Of a DNA stretch of 64,000 nucleotides, positions 2,725-41,519 are shown piece after piece. Within the stretch, counting starts at the first letter, position 1. The number at the start of each line of letters is the position of its first letter. Origin of the DNA: Ophioderma brevispina (lineage: Eukaryota > Echinodermata > Ophiuroidea > Amphilepidida > Ophiodermatidae); contig JAMKCH010044260.1 of assembly GCA_023653785.1 (NCBI GenBank), positions 1 through 64,000 on the forward strand, in the 5' to 3' direction. Position numbers and translations under genes: made by a program. The notes beneath the pieces were generated by a model. It was given only the letters and a program-made list of their open reading frames with translations, did no database searches and was not told where the DNA came from.

Positions 2725-5589
2725 TGAATGGTATCACTATACCAAGGAAGGGCGAGCTCTGATGGTATGGTCTTCAGTGAAAAAGGACAAAGTTCACAAG
2801 AACAATAATGTGGATGACGATTCACGTAAAGTTAGTCAGAAACATAGGATAAACACTAGGACAAGGATGACCTCAGACCCAAGAGGTCATCTCTCCTCGC
2901 CCCGTCTTGTGCATTTTGTGCAAATTCACCATACCTTTTCTAATTTACGGCATGACAGATGGGAAACTCGAAACTCATCTACAACGGCGGCCAAAAATTA
3001 ATTTTGCAATAATTAAATTTAATTTTGTGTTTTAGTCCTTATTTCCTTCTGTTGTCTATCTCTGATTTTGATAAACTAATAATCACAAAGCATATTGGAA
3101 TCATCGCAATCAGCCCGTACGCGTATACGGAAAGAAGAAACGTTTTTCAAGGAGAGCATTAAATTGTTGCACGTCAAGATCACGGAAATTACGTGAAGTT
3201 TAAGGGGGGGGGGTGGTAATGGTCTGAAGCGTGAACTTGAAATGATTTTTTTTTTCTCAACTTTTCCTAAATAGTGGTATATAAGTTATATCTCATATTT
3301 AGCCCATGTCACAAAGTTGATTAAAATCCATGGAAAATTTTTGCTCTGGTTGCCATGGTAACCCCGTAAGGCCTCTGATTGGCTAAACACTAGAACGAAT
3401 GTAACTAAATTACTAAACATATGCTACTTGTACTGAACTTGGTGACATAATGCAGAGTAAATACGGAGTAACCATGACGCCGGATTTTAATACCGTTGCC
3501 ACTGGCACACCGGCAATCGCCAATCGCCTACTTTCATGGCGTAATTTGGAATTTGGCAGAGGAACACAATTTTGAAAATCGCCTTCATGGTTCCACTCGG
3601 CCTATATGTGCTTTACTATGTGGCCAAATTTCATGTTTTCATAGCATGTAACGTTTTCTAGTTACGTTCGTGCTCGTTTTGGATGTTTCGTATTTTTAAC
3701 TAAACGAGTTATAGGCTCGAAAACATTTAGACAAATTGAGGCGCTTTTGATGTGCAATAGTTGGAATTATTTTTTTTAAATTTCATTTTAGACTGAATTT
3801 CATAATTATTCCTGAAAGAATCATCGAAATAGGTGCATCCATTGTCCTGTAATTAATTTTTAAAATAATTTTCTTAACTATCGCACGCAGGGAGAAAAAC
3901 AAAAAATAACATAAAAATCACTTACCCAGTGACATTTAAATAACTTTAAATTATGGAAGGCTACTATCAGTATTTATATACTTTCAACTTAGCCCAAAAT
4001 GAATGTTGTTATAGTTCATAAATAAATCTTTTAGAATATCTTAAATATAACCCCTTGAAATTTTTTCACATGATAAAATAGAGGAGATTATGCATTTTTG
4101 GCAAATTCGGACACTACTTGACTTTGATCAGCCATACTCGGGAACCCGAATGTACGATTGCATCGAATAAAACGCATTTTGTAGATTACATCTCACAATT
4201 TAGCCATTGCACTTATCTCATTTTTCTGATTATAACAATTTTTTATCATATTCAGACCCATACTCCCCCCTTAACATACTTTATAGTGGCTTGTTGTTTC
4301 TCATACCGTATAGTGCATATGACAATTCGATGGTCCGAATACAGCAAGGAAGAACAGGATACAATCATCCTGAATGATTTCTCGTCAAACGATTTATTAC
4401 TAAATCCAAGAGTATGCTCAATGCTTTGTATGACGGAAACGTGTTAAAACACAAATGCACAAAATAGTGAAAGAACTTTTAGTGTCCCTGTTAACCCCCT
4501 GAATTAGAGATTTGTCACCATACGTTACGAGTGGCATAAGCCTACTAAGTACTGGAACCTACCTAAATCCTGAACAACACCTAATGTACTCACAGAAGTT
4601 ATTAATGTCAAATTTGTAAACGAGTTTATTTAATCGTATCATCTGATGTATGTCTTGAATATTGCCCACATCTCAATTTTACAGGCCTCATACAAACTAT
4701 GACTATTTTGCACGTTCTTCTTCACAATTCTAGGAGAAATGTCACTTTGTACTTAGTATATTAGTAAAATCCTCAATAGCAAAGTAAACTTTCAATAAAC
4801 CCCACTACTTTGCTGACATAATTGTCTATTCTAAAAGATTCGACTGGCCAATTGTCCAGAGAATACAGCCTGAACCAAAAAGCTTGAACTGCTGGTGGTA
4901 TTCACCACTCAAAATATGGTTCCCATGCTACTAGTGAAGGGGCCTATGTAAAATTTGGGAATTTCCTGTTAATTATTGCACCACTATCAAAACGTTGATC
5001 TACTGGGTCTGACTATTCAGAAAACGATATTGCCATTTTTTCCGTTGAACTTAGTGAACATTGACCCACGGTCAAAGGTTTAAATGGTCATACTCTCCAA
5101 GTAAATCGACCTTGGTACCAAATGTGGCAAATTTCACAACATTGTATATTATATCATTTGTTATGTGACCTTTTTGTTTACTTGTTTAAGCAAATAACCT
5201 AATTAGAGACCATATAAATGCATAAAATAGCCTTTATGCAGACCCCATTCCTGTCCAAAGACGAGTAGACCTCAATTTGGCCATGCAGCATCTGCAACCC
5301 TACTCTGCTTGAAATGTAGAATAAGCCTACACACACCCTATTATTTCTTGCTATTAAATACTGGGGTACTTAAAGTAAACCAGTTTTTTGAACAAGGTGC
5401 AACAGAAATGGTCAATGTAACGACATAACCAAATCCATGGAACGAAATCGTCGTTATTAACCGTGAAAAACCACTACGCTCTTCAGCGACAAAAAGTATT
5501 TCTACTCGTTATCTTAGTCCTCAGTCACATGTTGATGTTTTTAATTATCTTTTCCATCCAGAGACCATGATAGTCTCGTCTAAAACAAA
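2725..5589. other. Anonymous spacer, no supported gene
   Basis: AT-rich sequence with only short ORFs. The 109-codon ORF at 4118-4447 has no recognisable domain and codon use like the surrounding sequence. The only site of note is the palindrome at 3349-3362, listed separately. Confidence 0.6.
3349..3382. promoter_or_regulatory. Candidate RFX X-box followed by an inverted CCAAT box
   Basis: GTTGCCATGGTAAC at 3349-3362 is a full palindromic match to the X-box bound by RFX factors, which drive ciliary genes. ATTGG, an inverted CCAAT box, follows at 3378-3382. No convincing exon lies downstream, so this may be a chance match or part of an unrecognised repeat. Confidence 0.3.
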
Positions 5590-6440
5590 ATCAAGTTAGC
5601 TCACCAATAGGAGCCCGGGGAGGTGGGGGGGTCCAAGTTGGTTTGGGTAGGGAACATGCCTCCGACAGTCTGCGAGTAGGACCCATAAGCTCATACCATT
5701 GTTTTGCCAAAAAAAGGACCCGTAGCTATACCAGAGATGCACATTTTGGGCCCAAATTAACCAAAATTGCCCTTTTTCCTCATAATTTGACATTTTAAGC
5801 AAATTTGGACCATTTCAGATTGAGGAAATTGTACAAATTTTCCAACAATATTAGAAAATTGGGGGCGCACTATTTTCCAAAAGGTATTTGCGAGAAAATA
5901 AAGAAATTTTTGAAAAAAACGACCCATTGCCATACCAAAATTGACATGAAAAAAGGGGCCAGTGTATATCCAGAAGGCTAAAATGAGAACTGTCTGTGGC
6001 AAGTCTCCGTAGGGTCATTTATGTTGAGAATCCCCCCAGGCTATAATACCAACCCCGTGCATAATAGGCTCCAATAAAAAAGCCCATCTTAGGTTAAACA
6101 AAGTTGTGTTACACAGTTTGTAAAAATGTGCAAGACAAACTTGTGATTCTCTTCATTTGTAGGGTTTTATCCTTTTCCTGGAGAAACCTGTTAAGATGAT
6201 GGGTTCATCATACACTGTTACGTTGTATTGGCATACGCTCTCTAAAGTATATAGCACATCTTAGTATATTGCTGAAATGTTAATGTTTGTGTGTCCAGAA
6301 TGGTGCACTGTTGCATTTTAGGGAAAGGTCATTTTGATGCCAAAAGACTAAGACGGGGGAAACCAATTTTAAACTCTTTGCAGTATGCCAATAGTCACGA
6401 GTGAGATCTACTTGTACAGAAGCTATTCAAAATCATACCA
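5590..6440. other. Probable old interspersed repeat, then anonymous sequence
   Basis: The stretch begins with a G-rich end (CCCGGGGAGGTGGGGGG near 5613) and has a C-rich patch near 6030. It reads like the 'CCCGGGG-ended' repeats seen near 7400, 22250 and 48010, but no second full copy is present for comparison. The ORFs on the minus strand show no domain. Confidence 0.3.
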
Positions 6441-6522
6441 CTAGCTTTTGAGTTTTGTATGAAGGTGGATGGCACTGCAGTATGGAGATGGAGAATATCC
6501 GGAGATCAGCAGCGGTTGCCGT

Positions 6523-6578
6523 CACACACCACACACAAACACCCACACCACACAACACACACACACCACACGCACACA

Positions 6579-6609
<31 letters not shown>

Positions 6610-6623
6610 ACACACACACACCC
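6523..6623. repeat. (AC)n microsatellite
   Basis: About 100 bp of imperfect AC dinucleotide repeats with occasional CC and AA interruptions. Every overlapping ORF in this area (Thr/His-rich on plus, Cys/Val-rich on minus) is low-complexity translation of this tract. Confidence 0.95.
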
Positions 6624-6800
6624 ACAAATCCCAAAAGGGCAAAAGGTCCACTTCTTTGTGATTGATTTTGCCATTAAAATGATCCAAAGTGTTGAGAATT
6701 TGACAAGTCCACTTTTAGTGATGGGATGTTCAAAAAAGACCATTCAAGGGGTTAGTCTGCTTTTACCAAAAAGTCCATATTTTCATAGTACCGCACCTTC

Positions 6801-7005
6801 TACACTCCAAAAAATGTTGAGTAAAAAAAGTCACAGCTCTTAATGTTGAGTAAAATCTTAGTCAAAGTTGAGTAAACCTTACACAAAGCTGAGTATATTT
6901 TACCCAACAATGACTAAGATTTAGTCAACAATTACTAAGATTTTACTCAACATTAAGAGCTGTGACATTTTTACTCAACATGAGTAAAATAAATTTTACA
7001 GTGTA
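6801..7005. mobile_element. Hairpin MITE, 205 bp, GTTGAGTAAAA type
   Basis: The two arms form an almost perfect inverted repeat. Left: GTTGAGTAAAA, then GTCACAGCTCTTAATGTTGA, then GTAAAATCTTAGT. The right arm is the inverse complement. Ends are TACACTCCAAAAAAT and ATTTTACAGTGTA, a diverged terminal pair. No coding potential. A transcript of this segment would fold into one long hairpin. Confidence 0.8.
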
Positions 7006-7803
7006 AATAAGGAGTTTCAAAAAGTACCGTAAACAAGTACAATTAATAATTTTATCGTTCTAAAAAGCACCCCTAAACAAGTATGGTAAGTGTAAAATCC
7101 TACCCTTAGTAAGTATTGGCAATATTTGACCCTAAGCAAGTAGAAATTTGTTTCTTTGCAGGCTATACTGAATAGCTCATTTACACAAATTGAGCCAAAT
7201 ACGATACAAACTCGATAAACAAAGCATACCCTAAAGTAAGTCAAGTCCCGGTTCAAGTGTGAAAAGTACACCTTTTTTCCAGATTTCAGTATTTTTGCTA
7301 CCCTTTTCACCTAACGTATGTATCGTGCACAATCTTGAAAAAATACCCCTTTTACGTGTTTCTTTGGTCGCGCATAATATCCCTTTATCAATGACCAGTG
7401 ATCCCCCGGGCTCTGGATGGAAAGAATAATTAAAACATCACACATGTGACTGAGACTGAAGATATAACTAGTATACTAACTTTTGTCTCTGTAGTGCGAA
7501 TCGTGTTTGTTTCACGGTTATAACAGCAATCCATTCCATGTATTTGGTATATTATCAACCATTTTCTCTTGCACATTTTCATGAAACAATTTGGTTTACT
7601 TAGCCATGGGCATTAATAGCAAGGTATAGTACTGTGGGGGTTGTGTAGGGTTCACTATACATTGTGCAAACACATGAGGCCTAACTCTTGCTTTGGTCAG
7701 GTCTGGAGTCTGAATAATGGCAAATTTATGCATATTATTGTCTCTCATTAGCTTATTTGCATATAACAAGAAAACAAAAGCTCAAGTAACAAAATATATA
7801 TCA

Positions 7804-11160: not shown

Positions 11161-12303
11161 TGTTTTCCAATTCAAAATGCCCATTTGTCTCTATTAGATT
11201 GCTAGTGTCAGGCTATCAACACCTATATTATTTTTTTAAAAAAACTTACCACTAAGAATTTTACAGTGGTCTTGAAGATGGTATTTAAACTCTTCTAGAC
11301 TTTTTTTAAAAATCCGGATCCCGTCTTTTATTAGTAAACAAAACACAAAATATCATCATTTCTTGACAACTACGCTTACGGCTGTAAAGCCCTAGCTACT
11401 TACGGGGTCTTACTACAACAATTTCCAAATCCAAAGTGGAAAAATGGACTTTGAATGACAAATAGGTGGCCCGATTTGTGTACCTTTTGAAGAAATCGCT
11501 GAGAGTGGCTTTAATTGGTTTGTCACTCTGCAATTACGATGGTGATGGAATCTTGTATAGACAGAACTTGAGATTTTCAGTCGTCGAGACGCTTACACAA
11601 TAGATATAGTGAGATATTTGATTTATCAAAGATACTCCAGAGTTGTTAAAATAAAACCGCAGTACTATATCGCTTAACCCAGTGTTTAATTGGATACCCT
11701 CCACTTGAAAAGTTTTAGAAATAAGACTCAAGCTCACAAACATTCAAATTTTGTTCTTTAAATTTGGAACTGTATTTACGAAGATTTTTTTTTTTCGTTT
11801 TTTTTTATTTATCTATTGCTTTCAATCTTTGAATCTCTTTAAATTATAGATTTTGCTTCAAATCGATGACATGCGTAAATTGACCACAGGAAAGTTTAGA
11901 TGTCAGAAGGTCTCAATTGGTTGTATCAGTGTCTACAAAAACCCGAGTTGTGAATCAACCAGCCCCAGCTGCACAACATTGACGGCATCGCTGCAAAATT
12001 GTATCACGGTAAAACACCTCATCTGAGATTCATATTGCAAGATTTTCTGCTAAATATTTGAAAGGATTGCAATTTGAAATCTAAATTCAGCTTATTATTG
12101 GGAAGGCTCTGAACTCAAAATTTCTATGAGCTATCAATTGCTATTGTACTCTTTACTACATACATATCCTGTTTTAAATGTCACGGAATTTCGTAAGAAA
12201 AGAATACTAAATATATTTAGAGCCTATCATGAACGTTGTGAAAATTGCTTTACTAAACTAGTCCTTATTTCAATCAAAAGGACGGGTTTTTCATCATGAC
12301 CAC
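11161..12303. other. Spacer upstream of LRR-GPCR 2
   Basis: AT-rich, with no ORF of note and poly-T tracts near 11790. One 119-bp segment (11890-12008) is flanked by AG and GT and encodes a cysteine-rich peptide; it is discussed as a finding. No TATA box or initiator could be assigned to the downstream receptor with any confidence. Confidence 0.5.
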
Positions 12304-12852
12304 ATGGATGTTTTGTTTCGATTTTACTTAAAATTGTCTTTGATGGTTTTAGGTCTTGTTAACAACCATTTTATTGCTTTGAATGGAATGGTTGCTGCTC
12401 GGCTATGGGTAGAACCATTGTGGATGGTTGCGAGCAACTCCACCCAACCATGCATGATTACCAACAGAAATACAAGCGACCAATTTGTTACCCTACAAGG
12501 TAACACTCACTACAAATGCACTATTCGAGTGATTGCTTCATCAGAATCGTATACATATCTACAAGTACCAAAACAAAACTCTTCTGGTAAGACTTTTACC
12601 CTCTATGTTGAAAAAGATGAGGACTTGTTAGATTTAAAATGTCCAAACAAGTATGTGGTGATAATGGAACAAGATGACATGTGCAATGCCGTTTTCATGC
12701 ACCAATATCTTCCGATGTTGGTGCATCTTCAAGGCAATGCAGCAGTGGGCATTGGGGAGGTGCTAGCATTAGGATCTCAAACGAGTGTCGCAAATGTGGG
12801 CAACATAATCAGTCCGAATTCAGATTCCCCACTCCGCTCTGCAAAAACGTAA
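12304..12852 (+). CDS. N-terminal segment of LRR-GPCR 2: signal peptide and CUB-like domain
   Basis: A 182-codon open segment. Residues 1-28 are hydrophobic with an N-terminal Met-Asp-Val start and look like a signal peptide, matching the position of the signal peptide in the paralog. Cysteines at 50, 72, 113 and 127 align with Cys29, 56, 96 and 110 of the paralog: last two spacings 41 and 14 here, 40 and 14 there. The 'HYKCTIRV' motif resembles the second-Cys region of CUB domains. The frame ends artificially at an indel near 12830; the +1 frame continues as PLCKNVKGYL to about 12918, matching PLCNITDYDI in the paralog. The start was chosen by alignment with the paralog's start. Confidence 0.7.
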   Translation: MDVLFRFYLKLSLMVLGLVNNHFIALNGMVAARLWVEPLWMVASNSTQPCMITNRNTSDQFVTLQGNTHYKCTIRVIASSESYTYLQVPKQNSSGKTFTLYVEKDEDLLDLKCPNKYVVIMEQDDMCNAVFMHQYLPMLVHLQGNAAVGIGEVLALGSQTSVANVGNIISPNSDSPLRSAKT

Positions 12853-13229
12853 AAGGATACTTGACAAATTTACATGTGCAAATGACTATTATATTTATGG
12901 ATATTGGTAGCTTTATTTGAGCAAAATGTGAACCCCTCTTGCTTGCAGGTAAGAAAAAAAAAAAAGTTCGTTTTGTAGGCAAGAATGATTTTGCTACAAA
13001 AACAACACTTGAAGATCATCTACCCCTCGCTGGTGACGGGAATTAATTCAATCTTTATAATAATCTATCAAATATTGTCCTTAAAACATTTAAAAGTTAC
13101 CCACTTTGCAAGTACTGCAACTGCAAAATAACCAGTTTGATGACACTGCATGGCGAATGTATTTTATGGTCTATTTGACCTAAGACACTTCTTTAAATCA
13201 TAACATTTCTGGCAAAATTGGACGCAGAA

Positions 13230-16200
13230 ACATTTACTCCTTTATTCACTCTTAGGGACTTCTACTTCAAAACACCGCCTGTTTCAGATAGACTTTGGTA
13301 TATTTCAAGATTTGGGCAAACTTACCATCCTTATTCTTGCTAACAACAGGTTAATTTCAGTTGGCAGATAATTTTCCTTTGGCTAAATAATTTTTGATAG
13401 ATTACACTTGGATGGAAATGAATTAGTTCATTTGAATGATAGTGGTTCCCTTTCTGGTTGATGTGGCTAAGGATTCTTGAGTCTGGAAAACAATAGGTTA
13501 AGTAAAATTTCCATGGATTTGTTTTCAGGATTTACAAATCTAATTGAACTCTATCTATGATAATCGTTGGAATCATTGAATGTTGACATTTTTGACAATT
13601 TGACAAAATGAACTCAGCTTAATCTTGCTACTAATCAATTGAAAACACTGTCAATGTGGTTGTTTAAGGCGGTACGAATGTTAAATATACTGAACCTTCA
13701 TGTGAAATAAATTAGACCGCCTTGACCAATTGGTGGGTCCCCCCCCCCTTTTTGAGCATGAAAGGCTAAATATCCTCGTACTTGAAAACAACACCCTGAA
13801 AGACAATGCCCGTTGGATTGTATGGGTTTTAGAAATTAATGACTATATCTTCGTGATAATCTGTTAGCAGCTTTGAATGCTGGCAGTTTTGACAATTTGG
13901 ACCAAATAACTCTGCTGATCTTGCTAATAAGAATGACGCACTGTCATTGGGGTTGTTTAAGGCGGTGCGAAAGTTACAAATACTGAACTTTATGGAAATC
14001 AAATAGACCTCTTAGAAATGGGTCATTCAAGGGATTGAATAGGCTTTTATCCCTCAATCTTGAAAACAACAGGCTGAAGACACTGTCATTATGATTGTTT
14101 TGGGATTAGAAAATCTGAATGAACTATAGCTTCGTGTCTCATTTTAGTATTCTTTGTGTGCTGGCATTTTTGAACAATTTGGCAAAATAACTCTCTTGAT
14201 CTTGCTAATACAAATTGACAACACTTTCATTGTTGGTTGTTTCAGCGGTAAAAGTTACACATACGGAACCTTTACGGAAACCAATTAGACTTCTTAGAAA
14301 ATTGGTGTCTTTGAGCGATTGAATAGGCTAAATATCCTTGTACTTGAAAACCACACTCTGAAGACATGCCCGTTTTGATTTTTTTAGGGTTTTAGAAATA
14401 TTAATGAACTATATCTTCGTGATAATTCATTTTAGCAACTCTATGGATGCTTGCATTTTGACATTTGAACAAAATTAACTCTGCTTTGCATCTTTCTACT
14501 AATAAATTAGACAAAACTGTCATTGGGGTAGTTAAGACGTACGACAAGTACATATACGGGACCTTTATGGAAATTAATTAGACCTCTTAGAAAATGGGGT
14601 CTTTGAATGATTGAATAGGCTAAAATATCATAGTACTTGAAAACAACACGCTGAAGACACTGCCCGTTGGATTGTTTTGGGATTGAAAATATGAATGAAC
14701 ATATCTTCGTGATAATAATCAGCAACTGGGAATGCTGGCAGTTTTGACCAATTGATAAAATTAACTTGCTGATCGTGCTAATAACAAATTGACAAAAGTT
14801 TCATTGTGTTTTTGTTTAAGGCGGTACGAAAGTTTTACCAAATTCTGAACCTTCATGGAATCAAATAGACCTATTAGACAAATGGTGTTTTTCAGGGATT
14901 GGAAAGGCTTATACCCTCACACTAAAACAACAGGCTTCACACTATCAGTAGGATGCTTTGGGGTTTAGAAAATCTGATACTACATCTTCGTGATAATCAG
15001 TTAGTAACTTTGAATGCGGCAGTTTTTTTGACAATTTGACAAAATTAACATCTGCTTGATCTTGCTATAACAAATTGACAACAGTTTCATTGTGGTTGTT
15101 TAAGGCGGTAACGAAAGTTACACATACTGAACCTTTACGGAAACCATTAGCTCTAGAAACTGGTGTGTTTGAGCGGAGTGAATAGGCTAAATATCCTTGT
15201 ACTTGAAAAGACAAACGGCTGAAGACACTTGCCCGTGGATTGTATTTGGTTTAGTAAAATATGATGACTATATCTTCGTGATAATCAGTTAGCAACTTTG
15301 AATTCTGCATTTTTGACACTTTGACCCAAATTAGCTCTGCTTGCATCTTGCTATAATAAATTGACAACTGTCATGGGTCGTTTAAGACGGTACGAAAGTT
15401 ACATATACTGGACCTTTATGGAAATTAATTAGACTCTCTTAGAAATGGGGTCTTGAATGATTGACTAGCACATATCCTCCGTACGTTGCAAACAACACGC
15501 TGAATACCCTGTACCCCGTTGATTGTTTTTGGGTTTAGAACATATGATGAACTATACTTCCGTGATAATCTCACTTGAATCTGGACAGTTTTGACAATTT
15601 GATAAAATTAAACTCTGATTGATCTTGCTAATAACAAATTGACAACATTTCAAATTGTGGTTGTTTAAGGCGTACTAAGTTACAAATTCTGAACCTTCAT
15701 GAAAATCAATTAGACCTCTTGAAATGGGTGTTTTTCAGGGATTGAATAGGCTTTATAACCCTCACCTTGAAAACAAACAGGCTTTGAGACTACTATCCAC
15801 TAGGATTGCTTTGGGGTTTAGAAAATCTGAATGAACGTATACAATCTTCGTGATAATCAGTTAGTAACTTTTGAAATGCTGTCATTTTTTGACAAGTTGA
15901 CAAAATTAAAACTCTGGCTGATCTTGCTATAACAAATTGACACCACAAGTTTCATTGCTGGTTTGTTTTAAGAAGCGTACCATTACACATACTGAACCTT
16001 CAGGGAAACCAATTAGACTTCTTAGAAAATGGCGTCTTTGAGCGATTGAATAGGCTAAATATCCTCGTACTTGAAAACAACACGTCTGAGACACGCCCGT
16101 TGATGCTTTGGGTTGTAAGAAAATTTAATGAACTACAATCTTCGTGTAATCAGTTATAACTTTGAATGTTGGCATTTTTGACAATTTTTGACAAAATTAA

Positions 16201-19200
16201 CTCTGTTGATCTTGCTAATAACAAATTGGCAACAGTTTCATTACTGGTTGTTTAGGCGGTACGAAATTACAAACATACCGAACCTTCACGGAAACCCAAT
16301 TAGCTTTTCTTAGAAAATGGTTTCTTGGAGCGATTGAATAGGCTAAATATCCTCGTACTTGAAAACAACACGCTGAGGACACTGCCCGTTGGATTGTTTC
16401 ATTGGTTTAGAAATTGGATGAAGCATATCTTCCGTGATAATCAGTTCGCAACTTGAAGGCTGGGCATTTTTTGACACTTTGACAAAATTAACTCTGCTTG
16501 ATCTTGCTAATAATAAATTGAAAACACTGTCAGTGGTTGTTTAAGGCGGTACGAATGTTAAATATACTGAACCTTCATGGAAATCAATTAGACCCCTTGG
16601 ATAATGGTATCTTTCAACGATTGAATAGGCTACATATCCTCGTACTTGAAAACAACACGCTGAAGACACTGCCCGTTGGATTGTTTATGGGTTTAGAAAA
16701 TCTGAATGAACTATATCTTCGTGATAATCAGCAACTTTGAATGCTGGCATTTTTGACAATTTGATAAAATTAACTCTGCTTGATCTTGCTAATAACAAAT
16801 TGACAACAGTTTCATTGTGGTTGTTTAAGGCGGTACGAAAGTTACAAATTCTGAACCTTCATGAAAATCAAATAGACCTCTTAGAAAATGGTGTCTTTCA
16901 GGGATTGAATAGGCTTTATACCCTCACACTTGAAAACAACAGGCTTGAGACACTATCAGTAGGATTGCTTTGGGGTTTAGAAAATCTGAATGAACTACAT
17001 CTTCGTGATAATCAGTTAGTAACTTTGAATGCTGGCATTTTTGACAATTTGACAAAATTAACTCTGCTTGATCTTGCTAATAACAAATTGACAACAGTTT
17101 CATTGTGGTTGTTTAAGGCGGTACGAAAGTTACACGTACTGAACCTTCACGGAAACCAATTAGACTTCTTAGAAAATGGTGTCTTTGAGCGATTGAATAG
17201 GCTAAATATCCTCGTACTTGAAAACAACACGCTGAAGACACTGCCCGTTGGATTGCTTTGGGGTTTAGAAAATTTGAATGAACTACATCTTCGTGATAAT
17301 CAGTTAGTAACTTTGAATGCTGGCATTTTTGACAATTTGACAAAATTAACTCTGCTTGATCTTGCTAATAATAAATTGACAACACTGTCATTGTGGTTGT
17401 TTAAGGCGGTACGAAAGTTACACGTACTGAACCTTCACGGAAATCAATTAGACCTCTTAGAAAATGGTGTCTTTGAGCGATTGAATAGGCTAAATATCCT
17501 CGTACTTGAAAACAACACGCTGAAGACACTGCCCGTTGGATTGTTTATGGGTTTAGAAAATCTGAATGAACTACATCTTCGTGATAATCAGTTAGTAACT
17601 TTGAATGCTGGCATTTTCGACAATTGACAAAATTAACTCTGCTTGATCTTGCTAATAATAAATTGACAACAGTGTCATTGTGGTTGTTTAAGGCGGTACG
17701 AAATTTACACATGCTGAACCTTCACGGAAACCAATTAGACTTCTTAGAAAATGGTGTGTTTGAGCGATTGAATAGGTTAAATATCCTCGTACTTGAAAAC
17801 AACACGCTGAAGACACTGCCCGTTGGATTGTTTATGGGTTTAGAAAATATGAAAGAACTATATCTTCGTGATAATCAGTTAGCAACTTTGAATGCTGGCA
17901 TTTTCGACAATTGACAAAATTAACTCTACTTGATCTTGCTAATAATAAATTGACAACACTGTCATTGTGGTTGTTTAAGGTGGTACCAAATTTAGATAAC
18001 CTGAACCTTCATGGAAATCAATAGACCTCTCAGAAAATGGTGTATTGCAGGGATTTTGAATCGGTTTATACCCTCGATACTTGAAAACACGGGCTGAAGA
18101 CTCTGCCAGTAGGATTGTTTTGGGGATTAGGAAAGCTGAATGAAAACTATATATTCGTGATAATCAGTTAGAAACTTTGAAGCTGGCATTTTTGACCATT
18201 TGACAAAATTAACTCTGCTTGATCTTGCTAATAACAAATTGAAACAGTTACATTGTGGTTTTTAAGGCGGTACGAATGTTACATATACTGAACCTTCAGG
18301 GAAACCAATTAGACGTCTTAGAAAATGGTGTCTTTGAGCGGTTGAATAGGCTGATGTCCTCGTACTGAAAACAACAGGTTGAAGACACTGCCAGTAGGAT
18401 TGTTTTTGGGATTAGAACATATGACTGAACTATATCTTCAGTGATAATCAGTTAGGCAACTTTGGAATGCTGGCATTTTTGCCAATTTGACAAAATTAAC
18501 TCTGCTTGATCTCACTTATAATACTTGACACCACTGTCATTGGGGTTGTTAAAAGCGGTACGAATTTAGATAAACTAAATCTTTATGGAATCAATCCGAC
18601 CTCTAGAAAATGGTGGTCTTTTCAGCGATTGAATAGGCTTTATACCCTCAACTGAAAACACCGGCTGGAAAACACTAACCAGTAGGAATTGTTTGGGGAC
18701 TAGGAAAATCTAAATAAACTATATCTTCATGATAATCAGTTAGAAACTTTGAATGGATTGATTTTTGACATTTGACAAAATTAATTGCTGGAGCTTGCTA
18801 ATAATAAATTGACAAACACTGTAATTGGGGTTTTTAAGGGGTACGAAAGTTACATATAATGGACTTTATGGACATCAATTAGACCGCCTTAGAAAGGGTG
18901 TCTTTAGGGGATTGAATAGGAGGGATATCCTCATTACCTGGAAAAAATAATTTGATTGGCTGAAAACACTGCCAGTAGGATTGTTTGGGGGATTAGAAAA
19001 TGAGTGAACTATTATCTTAATGCAATCAGTTAGATAGCCTCGATGCGAATTTGTTTAACGGATTGCTGGGCTATCCTGACTTAATATTGCCGAAAGGAAT
19101 TCCGTGAATGTTTTCCACGTAAATTGTTTTGGGGTTGAAATCTGAATAGACTCTATATGTATTTTAATCAGTTACGATAGACTCGATGCTGATTTGTTTT

Positions 19201-20130
19201 ACGGATTGTCAAGGCTGACCGTACTTGAGATTGCAAACTAATAATCTACGTACATTGCCGAAGGGGATTGTTTTGGGGATTAAAGGAAACCTCCTTGCAC
19301 TTTTTCTTGGAAGTAACCAGCTGGGAAATATTGAATGCTGGTATCTTTGACAATTTAACAAGATTAATGGCGAAACTTGATCGTTCTATTAATCTATAAA
19401 CCACATTGCCTGATAGATGGTTTTGGAGAACACAAAAAAATAATGTGGCTTTTATTGTAGAAACAAATTAGTTGCCATTGAATCAAAGTGGGTTCAACGT
19501 TTGAGCGATTTAAATACACTGTACTTGTTGAAAATCAAATAGTTACATTCGGTAATCAAAAGTCTTTTCAGGTTTGAACAAGTTAGAAAAATTGTCACTT
19601 GCACATAACAAGCTCAAGAACTACCAGAGATTATTTGTTGGATAGAAAATCGATAATGAACTATATCTTGATGGTACTCAGTTCGATACACATTGGATGC
19701 TAGTTTGTTTTACCGATTTGTCCTATTAGCTATCCATCGTTATATTTCTAAAATTCATTGACGCGCTTTACATCCGCTAGTGGGTTTGTTTCGGGATTTA
19801 CAAAATCTTACCCATCTGTACTTGTTTGAAATAAAGATTGTTCTTGCCCATAAATTTATTTTCATGTTTTAAGCATTCTGGAGGTATAGACTTTTGGAAT
19901 TCAATCACATCGACGGATACCTCGGTTACCTTCATGGTTTGCTCAATTTGAAAATATGTTCTTGTATTTTAGGGGGCAATGACATAAAAATGATTGAGTT
20001 TTAATCTTTTTATGAAACAAACACCAACTTATCCTGCCTACAGCTAACTGACAACAAACTTAAAAACCTTCCTTTCTTTGTCAAAATTTGATTACTTGAA
20101 ATCTTTATAATCAAATACACTGGTAGAAAT
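13230..20130 (+). repeat. 288-bp higher-order tandem repeat encoding four LRRs per unit (~19-24 copies)
   Basis: The marker TAACTCTGCTTGATCTTGCT recurs at 16771, 17059 and 17347 (exactly 288 bp apart), and with small slips at 16489, 17634, 17921, 18210 and 18497. Each unit encodes 96 residues as four 24-residue LRRs, starting LTLLDLANNKL, LHVLNLHGNQL, LNILVLENNTL and LNELHLRDNQL. Copies in 16500-17930 are nearly identical. Copies on either side, about 13640-16500 and 17930-19060, keep the wording but carry frequent one-base insertions and deletions. The first LRRs (13230-13640) and last ones (19060-20130) are more diverged in sequence. Confidence 0.9.
16537..17914 (+). CDS. Clean core of the LRR array of LRR-GPCR 2
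   Basis: Three adjoining open stretches (16537-16740, 16737-17627, 17624-17914) read as continuous 24-residue LRRs of the pattern LxxLxLxxNxLxxL. The first break is a 4-nt deletion of TTAG after GATAATCAG near 16730. The second and third (about 17621 and 17908) are one-T deletions in CAATTTGAC. Elsewhere in this core, units differ by only a few substitutions, implying very recent amplification or gene conversion. The ORFs on the opposite strand here are shadows. Confidence 0.8.
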
Positions 20131-20139
20131 AACCTATCC

Positions 20140-21273
20140 GAATCTTTTCTCGGCCTGCCAAGAAACTCAGTGTTTATGCAAGTCAACAGAGATATGTGAC
20201 TGTTATGGGCACCTTTTCTGGTATAAAGTGCAGTGCACTTACTATAATATCAGCCTATCTCATCCACATGTGATAGGCTTTTATCGGAGAGGTTTCTAGG
20301 GGGAATGATGGCTCATTGGTTTAAATTCGCTTGGCGGCAATGTTTTTGTTTTACTTGTGGAAAATGAAGATAGAAAAATTAAAAGTACAGATGTGGCTGC
20401 TTGCCAATCTTGCCTTGTCTGATTTCCTAATGGGAATTTATCTGATTGTCATTACATCTGGCTGCTAATCCCTTTTGAGACAACTTCCCCATGCAGTCTG
20501 TAAACTGGAGCACTAGCATTACCTGTAAAATATCTTGGTACATTATCAACAGCATCCCGTGATCCTCTCGTTTTCTTTGTGCGGTTGATCAGCATCGACA
20601 ATTTATTGGCATTAAGGTCCCGTACTCTACTAGAAGATCGCCGTGCAGGCATAAAGGATCTCTGTACTGACATGGGTTATTTCACTAGCTTTAGGTATGA
20701 TTCCTCTATCTTAGCTGGACTAGACCTCTAAATTTTATTACAACGCAAACGTTTGCATTGGCCTTTCCACTAGACTTGAATAAAGACTTTAACACTTTTG
20801 AGTCTGAAAGATACGACCACAATATTTGAACATAACGAAACATTTTGCGTCCGACTTTCTAATTTTTTTCAACATTCCACTTTTAAAAACATGTAGTATT
20901 TCTCCATCTGCATTGTTCCTTGGCTAAACTTTGTATTATACTGTGTAATACTTTTTTGGTATATTGAGATGGCTAGAGCTATACAGAAATATCGTCAAAA
21001 CAGTCTGGACGCACCCGCGACATGAACGAGCAGATCAGACTTACTGCAAAGTCTAACATCTATAGTGGCCACAGACTTCTGCTGTTGATTTTCCAATATA
21101 TTCTCGGGGTTCTGGTCCAACTGAGATTGGTTACGCTACCCCTGCCTCATCATTATATTCTTGGTTAGTGGCATTTGTTTTAACCTATCAATTCTGCCGT
21201 CAATCCCTACTTATATACGATTTGCCAGCAGCTTTATTTCAACTTACAAGAAGAAATGAACCGTTTAAATTAG
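20140..21273 (+). pseudogene. 7TM domain of LRR-GPCR 2
   Basis: Segments in several frames align with the intact paralog. A Cys-rich hinge (CDCYG ...) lies near 20190, and 'AAMFLFYLWKM' (end of TM1) at about 20337. LANLALSDFLMGIYLIVIT is at about 20400-20460 (TM2). A TM3/ICL2 piece, 'VRLISIDNLLALRS', has ID-N where gene 1 has FDRF. A TM5-like hydrophobic run follows at about 20890-20980, then the ICL3 'ARAIQKYRQ'. TM7 has PINSAVNPYLY, and a tail of about 15 residues ends at the TAG. The DRY/DRF region is altered and several in-frame stops occur, so as written this domain could not signal. Confidence 0.75.
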
Positions 21274-23019: not shown

Positions 23020-24643
23020 TGCCAAATTATTTAATGTAATGTCATTGACTTTCCTTCCGCTTTTTTAATAAGTCCAAAACAAACATCCCCCGGGGTATAG
23101 GTAAGATACAGGTGATCCCAAAGTGACCGATAGGGGGGGTACTCACTCTCTTAAAATGAAAGAGTGAAAATCACTCTGACTTTCGAGTTATTTTAAATTA
23201 ACTCTATCGAGTGGCTTTTACTCTAAAGAGCGAGAAATGCAACCCGACACCTTCACTCGCGGTTAACAGAACTCACTCTCCTCTTACCGATTGTGTCTCA
23301 AATGCCACTCTTCTTCGGGTTGAATCCCCCTCTGAACTCTTATCGACCGGTTTTAGCTCTAAAGAGTGGAAAATGCTCACTCTTTTTGGAGTGAACTAAT
23401 AGCCAATCGCCGCAAATCGCGTGATTATTTTCTAACATGGCGGACGAGTTAATTGAGACCGTCAGCAAACGGGTGAACGAAGTTGAAATTATGTAGACAT
23501 CATAAAAGCAAAAATTATCTTCACGGGTGATTATATTGTATGTTCGGTCACAAGTTTCAATGAGCATTTACAGACAAAGTGGGGAGCAGCAGTAAATGTT
23601 ATTTACTGTATTTCACTCGTCCATACGGTAGTCTGCGCGTCAGGCTCCGGCCAGGCTAGGTTTACACATGTACGAAACGCACAATCATCCATGTCACGTT
23701 CGGGCATGCTAACCGTAATCATACACGTCATGCATGCCACAATCAGCATGTTCTCACTGAATCATGCCACTGATGCGCCACAATATTCATTCATTCACGA
23801 TGCTATGATTATTACTACACATACAATATACTCACCAAACAAACAAAATTCCTAAAGAATCCCAACTCTATAAGCGTGACTAGTTCCCTCTAAAAAGGAG
23901 TTTCAGTTCACTCTCTCCCTTAGAGTTTATTTTTCACTCTTTATTTGAGTGATCTCACTCTAAAAGCTGCGTCACCTCACTTGCTCTTTTTTGGAAAAGG
24001 TTGGTTTTTTTCACTCTCTTTCGTTTTAAGAGAGTAACCACCCCTCCTCCGGAAGAGAAGTACCAACCCCCCTAACACAACACAGGAACATCACAGACCT
24101 TGATTTTGTACCACTAGATAGCTAATGGGTCCTCCTCTTCCATTGATACCAAAATGAGTACAACCATGCCTAGCATTACGTCACCATGACGTCATAAAGT
24201 TTGCATGTCAGCAAACTGCCATTTCCATAGAACACAACACATTGAAAAATTCAATTTTTTTCGCCAAAAAGGTTAGGACAATATCAGATGTTCATGCGGT
24301 TTTTTGACCTCTACTTGATGGGAACTGACTAGTTTTATATAATGACAATCATTTTAGAAGCTATACTAGGGTGTTTTTGAGGTCGCTAAAAAATTGCGAA
24401 ATCTCCATTTTTTCCTCCACCCCTAATATTCAGTATTTTCCGGTACTTTCCTCACTCTGACGTCATGGTGATAACATAATGGGAATGTTAGTTCTTATTT
24501 TAGTACCATGGAAAGAAGAACTCTAAGCTATCCTTGGTTACTAAAATTTACAGGAATCGGGTGTTCAGTAACGAAATCACAGGGGGGTGGTAACCCACCC
24601 CCCTTCGGGAGTTTTGTTACAAAAAGTTGCTCAGTAACGAGGG
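23020..24643. mobile_element. piggyBac-like MITE, copy A: left end missing, interrupted by another MITE
   Basis: From GTGCCAAATTATTTAATG (23031) to the right end (AACGAGGG then TTAA at 24644-24647) this matches the complete copy at 27303-28087. Differences are mainly small indels, plus one 893-bp insertion at 23142-24034. The left terminal repeat and first ~60 bp present in copy B are absent, so this copy is truncated. Several TGACGTCA palindromes are retained. It has no transposase. Confidence 0.75.
23142..24034. mobile_element. 893-bp MITE with CTCTCTTAAAA ends, inserted with a TA duplication
   Basis: Both ends are inverted: CTCACTCTCTTAAAATGAAA on the left, and a right end whose complement begins CTCTCTTAAAACGAAAGA. 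A TA dinucleotide flanks it on both sides (23140-41 and 24035-36). In the related copy B the same place reads GGTGGTAACCACC without the insert, giving a direct empty-site comparison. The interior has many CACTCTTT/AAAGAGTG subterminal motifs and a short segment near 23405-23495 with a CCAAT box and an ATG-initiated 19-codon frame. TA targeting suggests a Tc1/mariner-type mobiliser, but this is inference. Confidence 0.8.
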
Positions 24644-36230: not shown

Positions 36231-39200
36231 ATGTCATATTTTCTTTATCGAATATTAGTATTCTTACTGCTTCTTAAATGCACTATGTCCTTAGAAAAGA
36301 TCTCCTTGGATGCATGCAATGTCACCCATGTTGATGTTACAAAGGTTCCAATCACAATTGCCTCAGGAAGTCATATTGGTGAGTCAAACATTCACTGCAG
36401 CGTGAATCTGAATGCAGTTGAAGACACTGGAATATCCCTAGAGTTGTTCTATTCAGGCAATGGCGGTACCTTCTCTTACTTGTACCTTGAAAGATTAGGT
36501 GATTCCACTGAACAATGTCTTAAGAAATATGTTTCAATTTCTTTGAGTTATGTACCTTGCATTGTAGTTCTAACAACGAACACATACAATTTGTACTTAA
36601 TCAATGCTGAAATGGATTTAAAGGCTCTGGCAGTAAACAAGTCAGTTCCAAGTTGTTCTCAATCTAATAAATATGAATCATCTTCATTTGAGAATGTTGC
36701 CCTTCCTTTATGTAATATTACAGATTACGATATAGTTAAGGAAGGCTATCAGCCAGATTTTTGGTCATTAATTACCGTCTATGATTTGAATTGCCAAATG
36801 GAGTGTATTTGTACTCTTGACTATAGAAAATGGACGACTCTCTGTGCTAATGAAAAGGACAGTGTTGCGCTTGTCATATATGATCCGTACACTGTAGAGC
36901 TATCATTTGAAGCCGTAGGGTTAAGTGAAGTTTTACCTAATGCTTTTTACGGACTCAGTGGATTGCAAAAGTTATATTTAGGTGAGAATTATTTACGCTC
37001 ACTGCAAACCAATATTTTTGATAGTCTCTTTGAGTTGCACGTACTGCGTCTTGACAGTAATGAGCTGTCATCTGTGTCTGAAGGGGTATTTGATGGTTTG
37101 ATTCGATTATTGGTACTGCATCTTAACGATAATCACCTTTCTTCGCTGCCAAAAGGAGTCTTCGATCATCTTCTTCAATTAGAACAGCTATACTTGGACA
37201 GCAATCAGCTGACTTCATTTCCTGAGGCATTTTTTGATAATTTGGTTCAATTGGAAAATCTATATATTGAAAACAATCGTCTGGTTCTGTTGAATGTGGC
37301 TGTATTTGATGCCATTTCTCGGATGAAATTACTGCACCTGAGTAATAATAAACTTGGTTCACTTCCAGAAGGATTATTTGACGATCTTGTTCGATTAGAA
37401 CGGCTATACCTGGACAACAATGAACTGACTTCATTTCCTGAGGCCATGTTTGATAATTTGGTTCAATTGCAACACCTATACATTGAAAACAATCGGTTGG
37501 CTTCGTTATATGTGGGTATATTTGATACCCTTTCTCGGATGAAATTGCTGCGGCTGGGTAATAATCACCTGACCGCAGTCCCTATGAATATATTTAATGG
37601 TCTTGCTGCTCTACAAGGCCTATATCTTAATAACAATATGCTGACTTCATTGGCTCCGAGGATTTTTGCTTCGACTTATTTGCTTCAATTAAATTGGTTA
37701 CGACTTAACTTCAACATGTTGAAGCTGTTGCCGCCGGGTATATTTAATGCTCTGACTCAATTGAGAGGACTGTATCTCGACAATAATGAGCTAATGTCAT
37801 TATCTGCTGATGTATTTCGCACTCAGACCCAGCTGGTGCAATACAACTTCACAAGAATAACTTGAACGTTTTACCTACCGGTGTATTTGATGGTCTTGAT
37901 CAGTTGAGAGAACTGTCTTTGTCCAACAATAGACTGACATCACTACCTTCAAGGGCATTTGATTCGTTGAGTCAATTATTATCGCTTAATCTTGACTACA
38001 ACCAGCTAATAACACTTCCCGACGGCGTATTTAATACTCTAGCTCAGGTGCAGGAGATACACCTTGAAAGAAACCACCTGACTTCATTACTCAAAGGTGT
38101 TTTTACTGGTCCATTAACTTATTTGTGGTGGCTACCCCTGTACCATAATCACTTAACCACATTGCCCACGGATATTTTTCATGGTCTAACTCAACTGGAA
38201 TATCTAAGCCTCAATAACAATCATCTGGTTTCAATACCGATAGGTGTATTTGACGATCTACCTGAGCTAAATCGCCTATACCTTCACGGGAACCAGCTAA
38301 CCTTCTTATCTCTGCAAGTATTTGATGGTCTGACTAAGTTAGAGGGGCTTAGTCTTAATAACAATCAGTTGATGTCACTGTCAAAAGGTGTATTTGCTGC
38401 AATATCAGCCCATTTGCGGTGGCTATGGCTTGATAGCAATAACTTAACATCATTAGATAATGGGACATTTAATGATATGTTTCAGCTAAAGCATCTTAAT
38501 CTGGAAGACAATAAATTGACATCTCCGCTTGTGGGCGTATTCACTGATCTGATACATGTAGAGGAGCTACATCTGGACAACAATCGTCTTTCGTCTTTGC
38601 TTGAGGGCATGTTTCATGGTTTGACCGAGTTGATAGAGCTACGCCTTGACAATAATGGACTAACATTTTTAGCTGCAGGTGTATTTGATAGTTTGCTTCA
38701 GTTGAAGCAACTTAACCTCAGCAGCAACAACCTTACTACATTACCTGCAGATGCTTTCAAAGGTTTAGATCAGTTGGAATGGCTTAACCTTGAAAACAAT
38801 CAACTGGCCTCATTTCCTACAAATGTATTTGATGCTCTTGTGCAGTTGACAACGCTCAGTCTTAACGAAAATAAGTTGAGCACACTACCAGAAGCCTTCT
38901 TTGGCGGTCGGAGTTATTTCAGCTACTTATACCAGGCTCGGTTACATTGGCTATTTCTTGACACCAATCAACTATCGGTGTTGCGTTTGGGTGTATTTGA
39001 CAATCTACTGGAATTATTTGTTCTGCAGCTCAACAACAATTTACTGACCTTTTTGCCAAACGGTATATTTGATGCTCTGTCAAATTTACAATTAATAGAT
39101 CTCCACTATAACAATCTGAAATCACTGCCGGCTGGCATATTTGATGGTTTAGCTCGGATAGAAAAGCTATTCCTGGATTTCAATCAGCTTAGCTCTTTGC

Positions 39201-41519
39201 CTGAAAATATATTTCAAGACATGAATCAATGTTTTTTGCTCAGACTTAATAACAATTACTTGTCATTACTACCTAAGGACTTGTTCAACGCTTTGTCTCA
39301 GTCACTAATATGGTTAATGCTTAATCAAAACCAGCTGAGCTTTCTACCTTATGGTGTATTTGACGATATGATTCACTTGGAAGTTTTGGATCTCAGCGAC
39401 AATCAACTGGCAGCATTGCCTAGGGGGGTATTTAATTTGTTGAAGAAATTATTGAAACTAGAGGTTAAAAACAATCGACTAGGTTCGTTGCCAATAGATT
39501 CATTTATCCAACTGGCGAAGCTTCGTGTATTCTCCTTTGCCAAAAATGAACTGGTTTCTCTCCCAAACCACTTATTTCAGTATATGCATTCGTTACATGA
39601 TTTGTTTTCTTAACCACAACTCATTACTTACATTCCCCAAAGCCATATTCGAGTCGTTAGTAAAATTAAGAAACCTGCATGTAAATGACAATCATATATC
39701 AGACTTACCTGTTCGAATTTTTAACAATATGATCTCTTTGCAGTACCTAGATATAAGTGCCAACATGTTGACTAAAATGGAAAATATTAGTTTCCAATCC
39801 CTCACTGAGTTGCAGTTCTTGAATATTTCTAATAACCGTTTAACAAATATACCTCAATTTGGCTCACTTCATAATTTGCAAATAATAGATTTGAGCAAAA
39901 ATCAATTTGTAGGTTTGGACCTAAATAGATTCAACTCCATACCGGCAACTATTTTCCTCTCTTTGGAGCTCAATAACATAACTGATATTTCAATTGACAC
40001 TTTAAAAGTTTAATTAATTTGCGAGTTTTTAATTTGAGAAATAACATGTTGAGTTATATTAGACCAGGTGTCTTTATTAATCAATATAATGTTACCAGCC
40101 TAATCTTACCAAATAACCAATTGTCAAATATTGTCAGGGGTTCGTTTTCTGGTTTATTTCAACTACAAAACCTTGAAATTCAACAGAACAAACTATACGC
40201 CTTACCAGCAGGTACTTTTGATAATTTAACTCAATTGCAATTTGTCAATGTCTCACAGAATTTCATAACCAAAATTGGTGACGGGATATTCAAAGGTTCT
40301 ATTTATCTAGAAACGCTTGATCTGCGTTTGAATTCCCTCTTTCTTGTCTCAAAATCTTCTTTCATTGGACTGGACAATTCAACAATATTAGTAGACGAAA
40401 GTGCAACATGTTGCTTTGGTATCAACTCAAATTGCATTTCCCGGTATCCTAGACCCGTCTACCTATCGTGTAAAAGGATGCTAGACGACATTCTACTACG
40501 GGTATCCATGTGGGTACTTGGTCTATTTGCTGTTGTGTGCAATGCGTATGTATTTTACCTCCGTTCTATGGACAAACAATCCAATAAAATTCAAACATTG
40601 CTGATACTAAATCTGTCCCTTTCGGATTTCCTAATGGGAGTCAACATGACCTTATTGGCATCTGTTGACGCTTACTATGCAGATTACTTCCCATCTTACT
40701 CTGATGAGTGGAGGAAAGGTGCAATATGCAAATTAGCTAGTATTCTGTCATTGCTGTCAAGCGAAGTGTCCGTGTTTCTGATAACCTTGTTAAGTTTTGA
40801 CAGATTTCAAGGAGTCAGGTATCCATTTAGTGATCGTCGTTTAACACATAAGTCTGCTGCGTTTTGTGTGACAATGATATGGGGCACTGGTATCATGTTG
40901 AGTGTGATTCCAAATGTGCTATCTGGATGGTTTTCAGATGTTTTTGAAATCTCAGAGGTTTGTGTGGGTATTCCAATTGTTAGAAGGCCTGTAAGTGTAA
41001 CAAATCTAAGCACTGTCGAAATAAAAAGCCAAAATGTCGAGATTGTTAATAGGAGATCTATAGACTACGTCTATTTAGATATTATCAACCTATTTGTTGT
41101 TGAAGAAACGCCAGTATCAAAACATTCTGTTTTTGGGAGCTCTCAAATCATAGGTACCAAATTGGCAACGTACTTTTCCATAATAACCTTTATTGGCATC
41201 AATCTCATGTGTTTCGTGGTTGTTGCAATTATCTACGTGCAGATTTTTCTGACTGCAAGAGAGACGTCAAAAAAAGCAGGACGAAAACAAGATGAAAAGA
41301 GAGAGATACGTATGGCCATGAAGATGTCATCAATAGTCCTGACGGACTTTTGTACTTGGGTTCCGCTGGTCTTGATTAGCATCCTTGCACAGTGTAAAAG
41401 TTATAACGGTAGAACCAGTTGTGTATGCTTGGATTGTCGCTTTTATTATACCAATCAATTCTGCCATTAATCCATTTCTTTACACCATTATAACACTTAT
41501 TCAAGACAGAAGTAAATGA
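36231..41519 (+). CDS. LRR-GPCR 1: LGR/GRL101-like receptor with 48 LRRs, single exon, four one-base frame breaks
   Basis: A cell-surface receptor of about 1762 residues once four one-base indels are discounted. Residues 1-20 are a signal peptide. Cys29, 56, 96 and 110 form a CUB-like domain, and Cys188, 192, 194 and 205 an LRRNT cap. Forty-eight LRRs of ~24 residues run from ~222 to ~1383 (LxxLxLxxNxLxxLPxGVFD). A hinge with Cys1394/1395, 1402 and 1414 precedes TM1 (~1422). TM2 has LSDFLMG, TM3 ends in DRF (1524-1526), TM6 has FCTWVP and TM7 NPFLY (1747-1751), with an 11-residue tail. No LDLa module, unlike GRL101 or relaxin receptors. ECL2 is long (~70 residues). Breaks: a base missing at 37839-37840, an extra T in 39605-39608, a T missing near 40009-40011, an extra A in 41396-41399; three are in homopolymers. 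The ligand is unknown; LGR relatives bind glycoprotein hormones or relaxin-like peptides. Confidence 0.9.
37213..37644 (+). repeat. 216-bp (three-LRR) tandem duplication inside LRR-GPCR 1
   Basis: CTTCATTTCCTGAGGC occurs at 37213 and 37429, exactly 216 bp apart, followed by nearly identical text (TTTGATAATTTGGTTCAATT and 'GAAAACAATCG'). LRRs 5-7 are thus a recent copy of LRRs 8-10, or the reverse. The size is a whole number of LRRs, so the frame is preserved. Confidence 0.85.

What the first reader, a model, noticed from the sequence alone, without database searches (positions are those of the whole stretch)
13230..20130. Explosive amplification of a four-LRR (288-bp) module in a second receptor
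Around 20 copies of a 96-residue, four-LRR unit are arrayed in the ectodomain, giving room for about 95 LRRs. The core copies are nearly identical, so the expansion is recent. Because the unit is a whole number of LRRs and of codons, unequal exchange could alter ectodomain length without breaking the frame: a potential length-polymorphic receptor.
Basis: partly seen in the sequence, partly recalled or inferred. Interest (0 to 1): 0.75.

Follow-up and report, generated by a model that had tools for sequence, protein, structure and literature searches.

The report
Expanded repeat array in brittle-star receptor
A brittle-star gene for a large surface receptor carries an unusually long run of about 19 copies of one building block, but this stretch of the draft genome is so full of what look like sequencing errors that neither the exact copy number nor whether the gene still works can be read from it.

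Summary
The 288-bp array is real: 19 well-matched units at 13568-19031, each four 24-residue LRRs, in a gene from about 12302 to 21256 that ends in a relaxin-receptor-like 7TM domain. Fifteen other contigs of this 2.51-Gb draft genome hold relatives; best named matches are Amphiura filiformis, so it is a brittle star. Close relatives carry the same unit in 3-5 copies; the window gene is 13.9 units (4.0 kb) longer than relative L010. But the array is not an open frame: 100 frameshifts and 11 stops in 5.7 kb, with one low-error island (16534-18021). Two other contigs that share a locus switch abruptly from 2.4 to 31-66 gap openings per kb, away from gene borders: the assembly seems to contain uncorrected patches. 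So most frame breaks here are probably sequencing error, and the 'nearly identical core' is largely the one well-read island. Shared lesions inside that island may be real, so a pseudogene is not excluded. Copy number rests on one noisy contig; no allele was found, so length polymorphism is untested. Added here: hints of a 3-unit (864-bp) higher-order repeat, and whole-LRR amplification elsewhere in the family.

The parts
12302..21256 (+). LRR-GPCR gene (probably one coding exon, as in relative L015): N-terminal domain, LRR ectodomain, 7TM
   Evidence: Frameshift-aware alignment to relatives L015 (N-terminal 320 aa) and L010 (7TM): 12302-13270 and 20269-21256; span 8955 nt against 4949 in L010
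12262..12852 (+). N-terminal signal/cap region in a low-error stretch
   Evidence: 196-codon open stretch; one frameshift in 12300-12599 and two in 12600-12899, against six or seven per 300 nt beyond; the first is a one-base loss at a run of three Ts
12853..13567 (+). End of N-terminal domain and first, diverged LRRs; noisy
13568..19031 (+). Tandem array, 19 units of about 288 bp (4 LRRs each)
   Evidence: 100 frameshifts and 11 stops counted over 13567-19300
16534..18021 (+). Low-error island; contains the only long open stretch (16728-17627, 299 aa)
   Evidence: 3 frameshifts in 1.49 kb (16732, 17625, 17912); ORF; AlphaFold2 LRR solenoid, pLDDT 93.1 with a 10-sequence alignment
14146..17305 (+). 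Stretch with unit types in the order A C B A C B A A X B A: a possible 3-unit (864-bp) higher-order repeat
   Evidence: lag-3 agreement 0.732 against 0.556, permutation p 0.009 (block chosen after the fact), 0.026 for the whole array with 9 lags tried
19032..20130 (+). Diverged LRRs between array and hinge; noisy
20269..21256 (+). 7TM domain, relaxin-receptor-like; 21.3 frameshifts per kb
   Evidence: 230 of 304 aligned codons identical to L010; the 7TM of intact relative L015 hits RXFP1 chain 7tmw_R first, E 4.3e-31

Best explanation
The window holds one member of a large brittle-star family of LRR-GPCRs (LGR-like). Its ectodomain grew by repeated unequal exchange or replication slippage of an in-register 4-LRR (288-bp) module, perhaps partly as a 3-module (864-bp) block, from a 3-5-unit ancestor like its close relatives to about 19 units. 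Most of the roughly 100 frame breaks are uncorrected long-read errors of a patchwork draft assembly, not biology. If expressed intact, the product would be a very long LRR solenoid on a 7TM anchor. Growth by whole modules would extend the ligand-facing surface while leaving the N-terminal cap, the hinge and the 7TM domain unchanged. Shown: array, family, module, predicted fold of the core, patchwork noise in related contigs. Inferred: the noise here has the same cause; unequal exchange; an intact gene in the animal. The ligand-binding role is by analogy to LGRs.
For: Array and unit. Relatives in the same genome with the unit in few copies: L009 5, L010 4, L011 5 (noisy), L012 3 well-matched; open stretches of 1800 aa (L015), 1258+422 aa (L010), 1325 aa (L013). 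The window gene is longer than L010 by 4006 nt = 13.9 units. In the unit tree the first window unit groups with the first unit of 5-unit relative L011 (support 0.75) and the last with its last (0.88), as expected if inner units multiplied; by plain distance these are not the very nearest units (13568 is nearer to 16447; 18742 to L009_3739). Patchwork noise: contigs L019 and L022 agree to 4.5 substitutions and 2.4 gap openings per kb over 2470 nt, then 75/66 and 37/31 per kb on either side, edges set by eye; one edge lies downstream of the 7TM, the other inside the LRRs. Frameshift density is bimodal within single loci (L012: N-term 0, 7TM 14.0 per kb; L019: N-term 15.9, 7TM 2.0). In the window's 7TM, sites conserved in three clean relatives carry 77 private changes in 736 (27 transitions, 50 transversions) and 21 indels; controls, on sites conserved in two relatives (a laxer rule), 35 of 784 for L009 and 37 of 786 for L010, with 1 and 0 indels. 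AlphaFold2 gives an LRR solenoid with a short helix once per 96 residues; PDB folds near it are an engineered LRRTM2, Toll5A and, lower, LGR4/5.
Against: Inside the low-error island three frame-breaking deletions remain; the 1-bp deletion at 17625 and 17912 is shared, with a T-to-C change, by two adjacent units, and the 4-bp deletion at 16732 is compatible with noisy type-B units at 14721 and 15570. Lesions shared by copies look like real, amplified mutations. The noise cause was shown on other contigs, not on this one, and L019/L022 could in principle be two relatives with one converted block. The transversion excess is weak evidence: L010 shows it too (14:23), L009 does not (19:16), noisy L011 does not (39:41). 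No second sequence of this locus was found in the assembly.
Confidence: 0.6

Rival explanations
1. A real array in a dead gene: the frame breaks are genuine decay, and the module kept multiplying without coding constraint.
For: Frame breaks run through the end of the N-terminal domain, the array and the 7TM alike. In the low-error island adjacent units 17594 and 17881 share a 1-bp deletion plus T-to-C; unit 16730 lacks four bases. dN/dS among window, L009 and L010 units is 0.3-1.5 (one L009 unit with a stop left out), so selection looks weak in places.
Against: About 100 frameshifts in 5.7 kb around an island with 3 is not uniform decay. The same patch pattern is seen between two contigs that share a locus. 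Aligned 7TM codons stay 76% identical to L010 (230 of 304). The breaks at 12.33 kb, 17625 and 17912 are one-base losses at runs of three Ts, a usual kind of long-read error (recalled, not tested).
Confidence: 0.28
2. The copy number is inflated by the assembler: a shorter true array was read several times and strung together from noisy reads.
For: The C-B-A triplets at 14434-15290 and 15291-16155, and noisy A and B units, cannot be told from one another or from clean A and B beyond noise. Relative L009's contig holds 707 and 259 bp of hinge/7TM twice at 99.4-99.6%, so strings of this kind, or recent duplications, occur in this assembly. Close relatives have 3-5 units.
Against: One read was not pasted twice: none of 18 long self-alignments exceeds 79.7% identity, and with strict scoring the longest of 23 matches between noisy parts is 342 columns at 83.9%, the most alike of the 12 printed 93% over 102. 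Distinct C and X units precede otherwise similar B-A pairs, so not all repeats are one segment. Different reads of one stretch cannot be excluded this way.
Confidence: 0.3

Closest known systems
LGR family of GPCRs (RXFP1/2, TSHR/FSHR/LHCGR, LGR4-6)
   Same: LRR ectodomain on a rhodopsin-class 7TM; the 7TM of intact relative L015 hits RXFP1, then TSHR, FSHR, LHCGR; core fold matches LGR4/5 ectodomains among many LRR proteins
   Different: 17 LRRs in LGR4-6 and 10 in RXFP1/2 (PMC4561518, passages) against 42-46 motifs in L010 and L015 and room for about 95-100 here; no LDLa domain found in the proteins scanned
Amphiura filiformis uncharacterized LRR-7TM proteins (P0001, P0015, P0031)
   Same: Same architecture, 56-64% identical to L015 over the 7TM stretch searched; P0031 carries its own run of very similar LRRs
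   Different: At most 35 LRR motifs among the 120 listed relatives, and that one (P0001) looks like two receptors in one gene model; the search's length limits would miss very long proteins
GRL101 / type C2 LGRs
   Same: LRRs plus 7TM, insulin/relaxin-type receptor branch
   Different: Lymnaea GRL101 has six LRRs and twelve LDLa repeats, and one orthologue per ambulacrarian species was found (PMC8286064, passages); here no LDLa found and many genes
Podospora het-d/het-e NLR sensor repeats
   Same: Near-identical tandem repeats in a recognition domain, with different repeat combinations between alleles; short-read assemblies unreliable (PMC12222747, abstract)
   Different: WD40 repeats in an intracellular fungal NLR; allelic variation shown there, not here

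Membership tests
LGR-type LRR-GPCR | Rhodopsin-class 7TM | tested here: met
   7tm_1 in L015 (E 9.6e-30) and L010 (2.5e-34); window 7TM aligns to L010 over positions 1-329 of 329 with 21.3 frameshifts per kb. Pfam on two short window pieces alone gave no hit
LGR-type LRR-GPCR | Ectodomain of 24-residue LRRs | tested here: met
   12 motifs at 24-residue steps in 299 aa; LRR_8; solenoid model
LGR-type LRR-GPCR | 7TM closer to LGRs than to other GPCRs | tested here: met
   Best ten solved chains for L015's 7TM: RXFP1, TSHR, FSHR, LHCGR and one GPCR of unstated kind (8w1z); next a somatostatin receptor at E 3e-11. No tree was built, and the window's own broken 7TM was not searched
Type C LGR (relaxin-receptor type) | N-terminal LDLa module | tested here: not met
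   No LDLa at E 0.01 in L015, L010, P0031, P0015 or in the window's N-terminal open stretch; other relatives not scanned
Functional receptor gene | One open reading frame | tested here: inconclusive
   Broken about 100 times in the array, mostly explicable by assembly noise
Length-polymorphic tandem-repeat gene | Different copy number between alleles or individuals | not testable with these tools
   No allelic contig found; L011 is a relative with 5 units whose homology stops at 21473

The most novel reading that the evidence does not exclude
The array is intact and length-variable in the living animal: brittle stars make a giant LGR-like receptor of about 100 LRRs whose binding surface is lengthened or shortened between alleles by whole 4-LRR or 12-LRR blocks, as one case of a family-wide habit of remodelling receptors by module amplification.
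Probability: 0.2. Interest if true: 0.75.

Novelty: new variant of a known kind. Interest (0 to 1): 0.4.

Why it matters
RXFP1/2 have 10 LRRs and LGR4-6 have 17; this family runs to more than 40 in relatives with open frames, and the window gene to about twice that as assembled. If confirmed with accurate reads, it would be a natural case of a GPCR ectodomain growing by whole modules, testable for copy-number alleles. It also warns that this draft assembly cannot be used to call pseudogenes or ages of repeats in such arrays.

Tried and rejected
Same-read concatenation: not seen. L011 (C50086) as the other allele: considered because it resembles the window in the low-error N-terminal part (3.8-8.2% substitutions per 200-nt bin over 12200-12800 although itself noisy; clean L012 4.0-8.0%) and shares blocks up to about 9.6 kb upstream of the gene, but it is not closer than L009 in the 7TM and shows no homology downstream of 21473, apart from one 183-column reverse match, in the 28.8 kb of that contig examined; kept as a young relative. 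Species: best matches in named records are Amphiura filiformis, 56-64% over the 7TM stretch, so an ophiuroid, species not named; the Ophioderma brevispinum draft (2.68 Gb, 88,538 scaffolds; PMC9367165, passages) does not match 2.51 Gb and 65,844 contigs. The assembler was not identified; the DBG2OLC paper (PMC5004134, passages) was looked at only as an example of patching with raw reads. AlphaFold2 without alignment gave a meaningless helical model, pLDDT 51.4. Codon-position counts on a MAFFT alignment did not separate decay from error. Paper searches whose listings (titles, starts of abstracts) show no report of this array or of an ophiuroid LRR-GPCR expansion: (no paper). The Amphiura genome paper (PMC11310086) has no 'leucine', 'LRR' or 'GPCR' in its held main text; the Ophiura sarsii vadicola paper mentions GPCR enrichment and rapidly evolving GPCR families but not 'leucine-rich' (PMC11959729, passages); the crown-of-thorns paper treats GRL101 (PMC6267866, passages).

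Full report
What is there. TRF finds a 288-bp array at 13751-18920, 18.1 copies. Aligning the region cyclically to one core unit gives 19 well-matched units, 13568-19031, between diverged LRR sequence on both sides. The open stretch 16728-17627 encodes 12 LRRs at exact 24-residue steps. AlphaFold2 with ten aligned segments from this genome gives a confident solenoid (pLDDT 93.1) in which a short helix recurs once per 96 residues, so the 4-LRR unit is also a structural period of the model. PDB folds near it are an engineered LRRTM2, LRR proteins of Leptospira, designed LRRs, Toll5A and, further down, LGR4/LGR5.

The gene. A frameshift-aware alignment places the N-terminal domain from 12302 and the 7TM at 20269-21256. 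The 7TM of the intact relative L015 hits RXFP1 first, then the glycoprotein-hormone receptors. A search of the window's own genome (2.51 Gb, 65,844 contigs) hit 15 further contigs (only the best candidates are scored, so a lower bound), fetched as 16 loci L009-L024, C59429 giving two; 16 of 16 show the N-terminal domain, the 7TM or both. L019 and L022 share a locus. Best matches in named records are Amphiura filiformis proteins, hence an ophiuroid. The 288-bp unit occurs in L009 (5 units, a stop in the fifth), L010 (4), L011 (5, noisy) and L012 (3 well-matched). From N-terminal start to 7TM end the window gene measures 8955 nt, L010 4949 nt: 13.9 units more. Against the other 11 loci measured the excess is 8.7 to 15.2 units, but several of those spans are noisy or contain duplicated pieces; four loci (L012, L021, L023, L024) were not measured.

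The frame. The window array needs 100 frameshifts and 11 stops over 13567-19300; the 7TM has 21.3 frameshifts per kb. Only 16534-18021 is nearly free (3). Is this decay or error? Three results point to error. First, frameshift density is bimodal between, and even within, loci: L010 and L015 0 per kb at both ends (each being the reference at one end; L010 does have one break between its two open stretches), L012 0 and 14.0, L019 15.9 and 2.0, L013 0 and 7.1, window gene 13.4 and 21.3, the window's second receptor 7.9 at the N-terminus (a distant alignment across an open stretch) and 1.0 in the 7TM. Second, L019 and L022 match at 4.5 substitutions and 2.4 gap openings per kb over 2470 nt, and at once switch to 75/66 and 37/31 per kb on the two sides, one edge beyond the end of the 7TM. 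I read this as accurate anchors joined by uncorrected reads. Third, at sites conserved in three clean relatives the window's 7TM carries about twice the private substitutions of clean controls (10.5% against 4.5-4.7%) and 21 indels against 0-1. Its transversion excess (50 to 27) is weak evidence, since control L010 shows one (23 to 14) and noisy L011 does not (41 to 39).

Results against that reading. Inside the low-error island, units 17594 and 17881 share a T-to-C change and a 1-bp deletion, and unit 16730 lacks four bases that most other units have; the noisy units of the same type (14721, 15570) are compatible with the same loss. Shared lesions suggest real mutations that were amplified, as in a pseudogene. 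The 1-bp losses, and one at 12.33 kb, sit at runs of three Ts, where long-read consensus often errs (recalled). I cannot settle this without reads, and put the dead-gene reading at 0.28.

Age and order of the units. In the island, units 17018 and 17306 differ by 2.4%, other neighbours by up to 10.4%. Among three in-frame units dS is 0.06-0.15, against 0.10-0.31 among four units of L009 (a fifth, with a stop, left out) and four of L010, so the window array looks younger than its relatives' arrays, on 3 of its 19 units. Outside the island, units of type A (14146, 15003, 15863, 16156) differ from clean unit 17018 by 2.2-6.5% and type B units (14721, 15570) from clean 16730 by 4.0-4.4%, about adding up between the two noisy Bs (7.3%), as independent errors would; the 7TM suggests substitution noise of about 6% above controls. 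So the flanks are not shown to be older than the core. The order A C B A C B A A X B A over 14146-17305 suggests a 3-unit block; of nine lags only lag 3 is below p 0.05 (0.026 whole array; 0.009 in the block, chosen after seeing it).

Copy number. The count of 19 comes from one contig. No noisy stretch repeats at high identity, so a read was not pasted twice, but different reads of one stretch cannot be told from true copies. Relative L009 contains 707 and 259 bp of hinge/7TM sequence twice at 99.4-99.6%, a warning that this assembly can string pieces together.

Family habit. Of the 120 listed relatives (of 286 found), 18 have an internal repeat of at least 70% identity over 96 residues; the best lag is a multiple of 24 in 18 of 18, from one to ten LRRs. 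LRR spacing itself favours such lags. LRR motif counts are 11-35 (median 21) in these proteins, and 46 and 42 in L015 and in the longer open stretch of L010.

Verdict. A real, unusually long module array in a brittle-star LGR-like gene, in a badly read stretch.

Noticed in passing
36231-41516: The other LRR-GPCR of the window (LRR_8, 7tm_1), with about four frame breaks in 5.3 kb and a 216-bp (3-LRR) tandem repeat at 37168-37651; 118 of 324 7TM codons identical to L010.
   Followed up: partly
41591-42808: A 16-bp minisatellite, 76.1 copies at 94% matches, starts about 75 bp after the end of the second receptor's aligned 7TM and is open in two frames for 260 and 308 codons.
   Followed up: no
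L009, reverse complement 5116-6079 and 6095-7189: 707 and 259 bp of hinge/7TM sequence occur twice at 99.4-99.6% in one gene: assembly artefact or a very recent partial duplication.
   Followed up: partly
L019 and L022: Two contigs of one receptor locus; outside the near-identical block the matched pieces leave L022 with about 1.16 kb and 0.73 kb more sequence than L019, a possible length allele, but in noisy sequence.
   Followed up: partly
P0031 (Amphiura filiformis, 1499 aa): A run of very similar single 24-residue LRRs in a relative from a 67.9-Mb contig, i.e. a chromosome-scale record.
   Followed up: no
23145-24036: A high-copy dispersed repeat: 8857 first-look candidates, 40 scored, most full-length matches 80-88% identical.
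   Followed up: no
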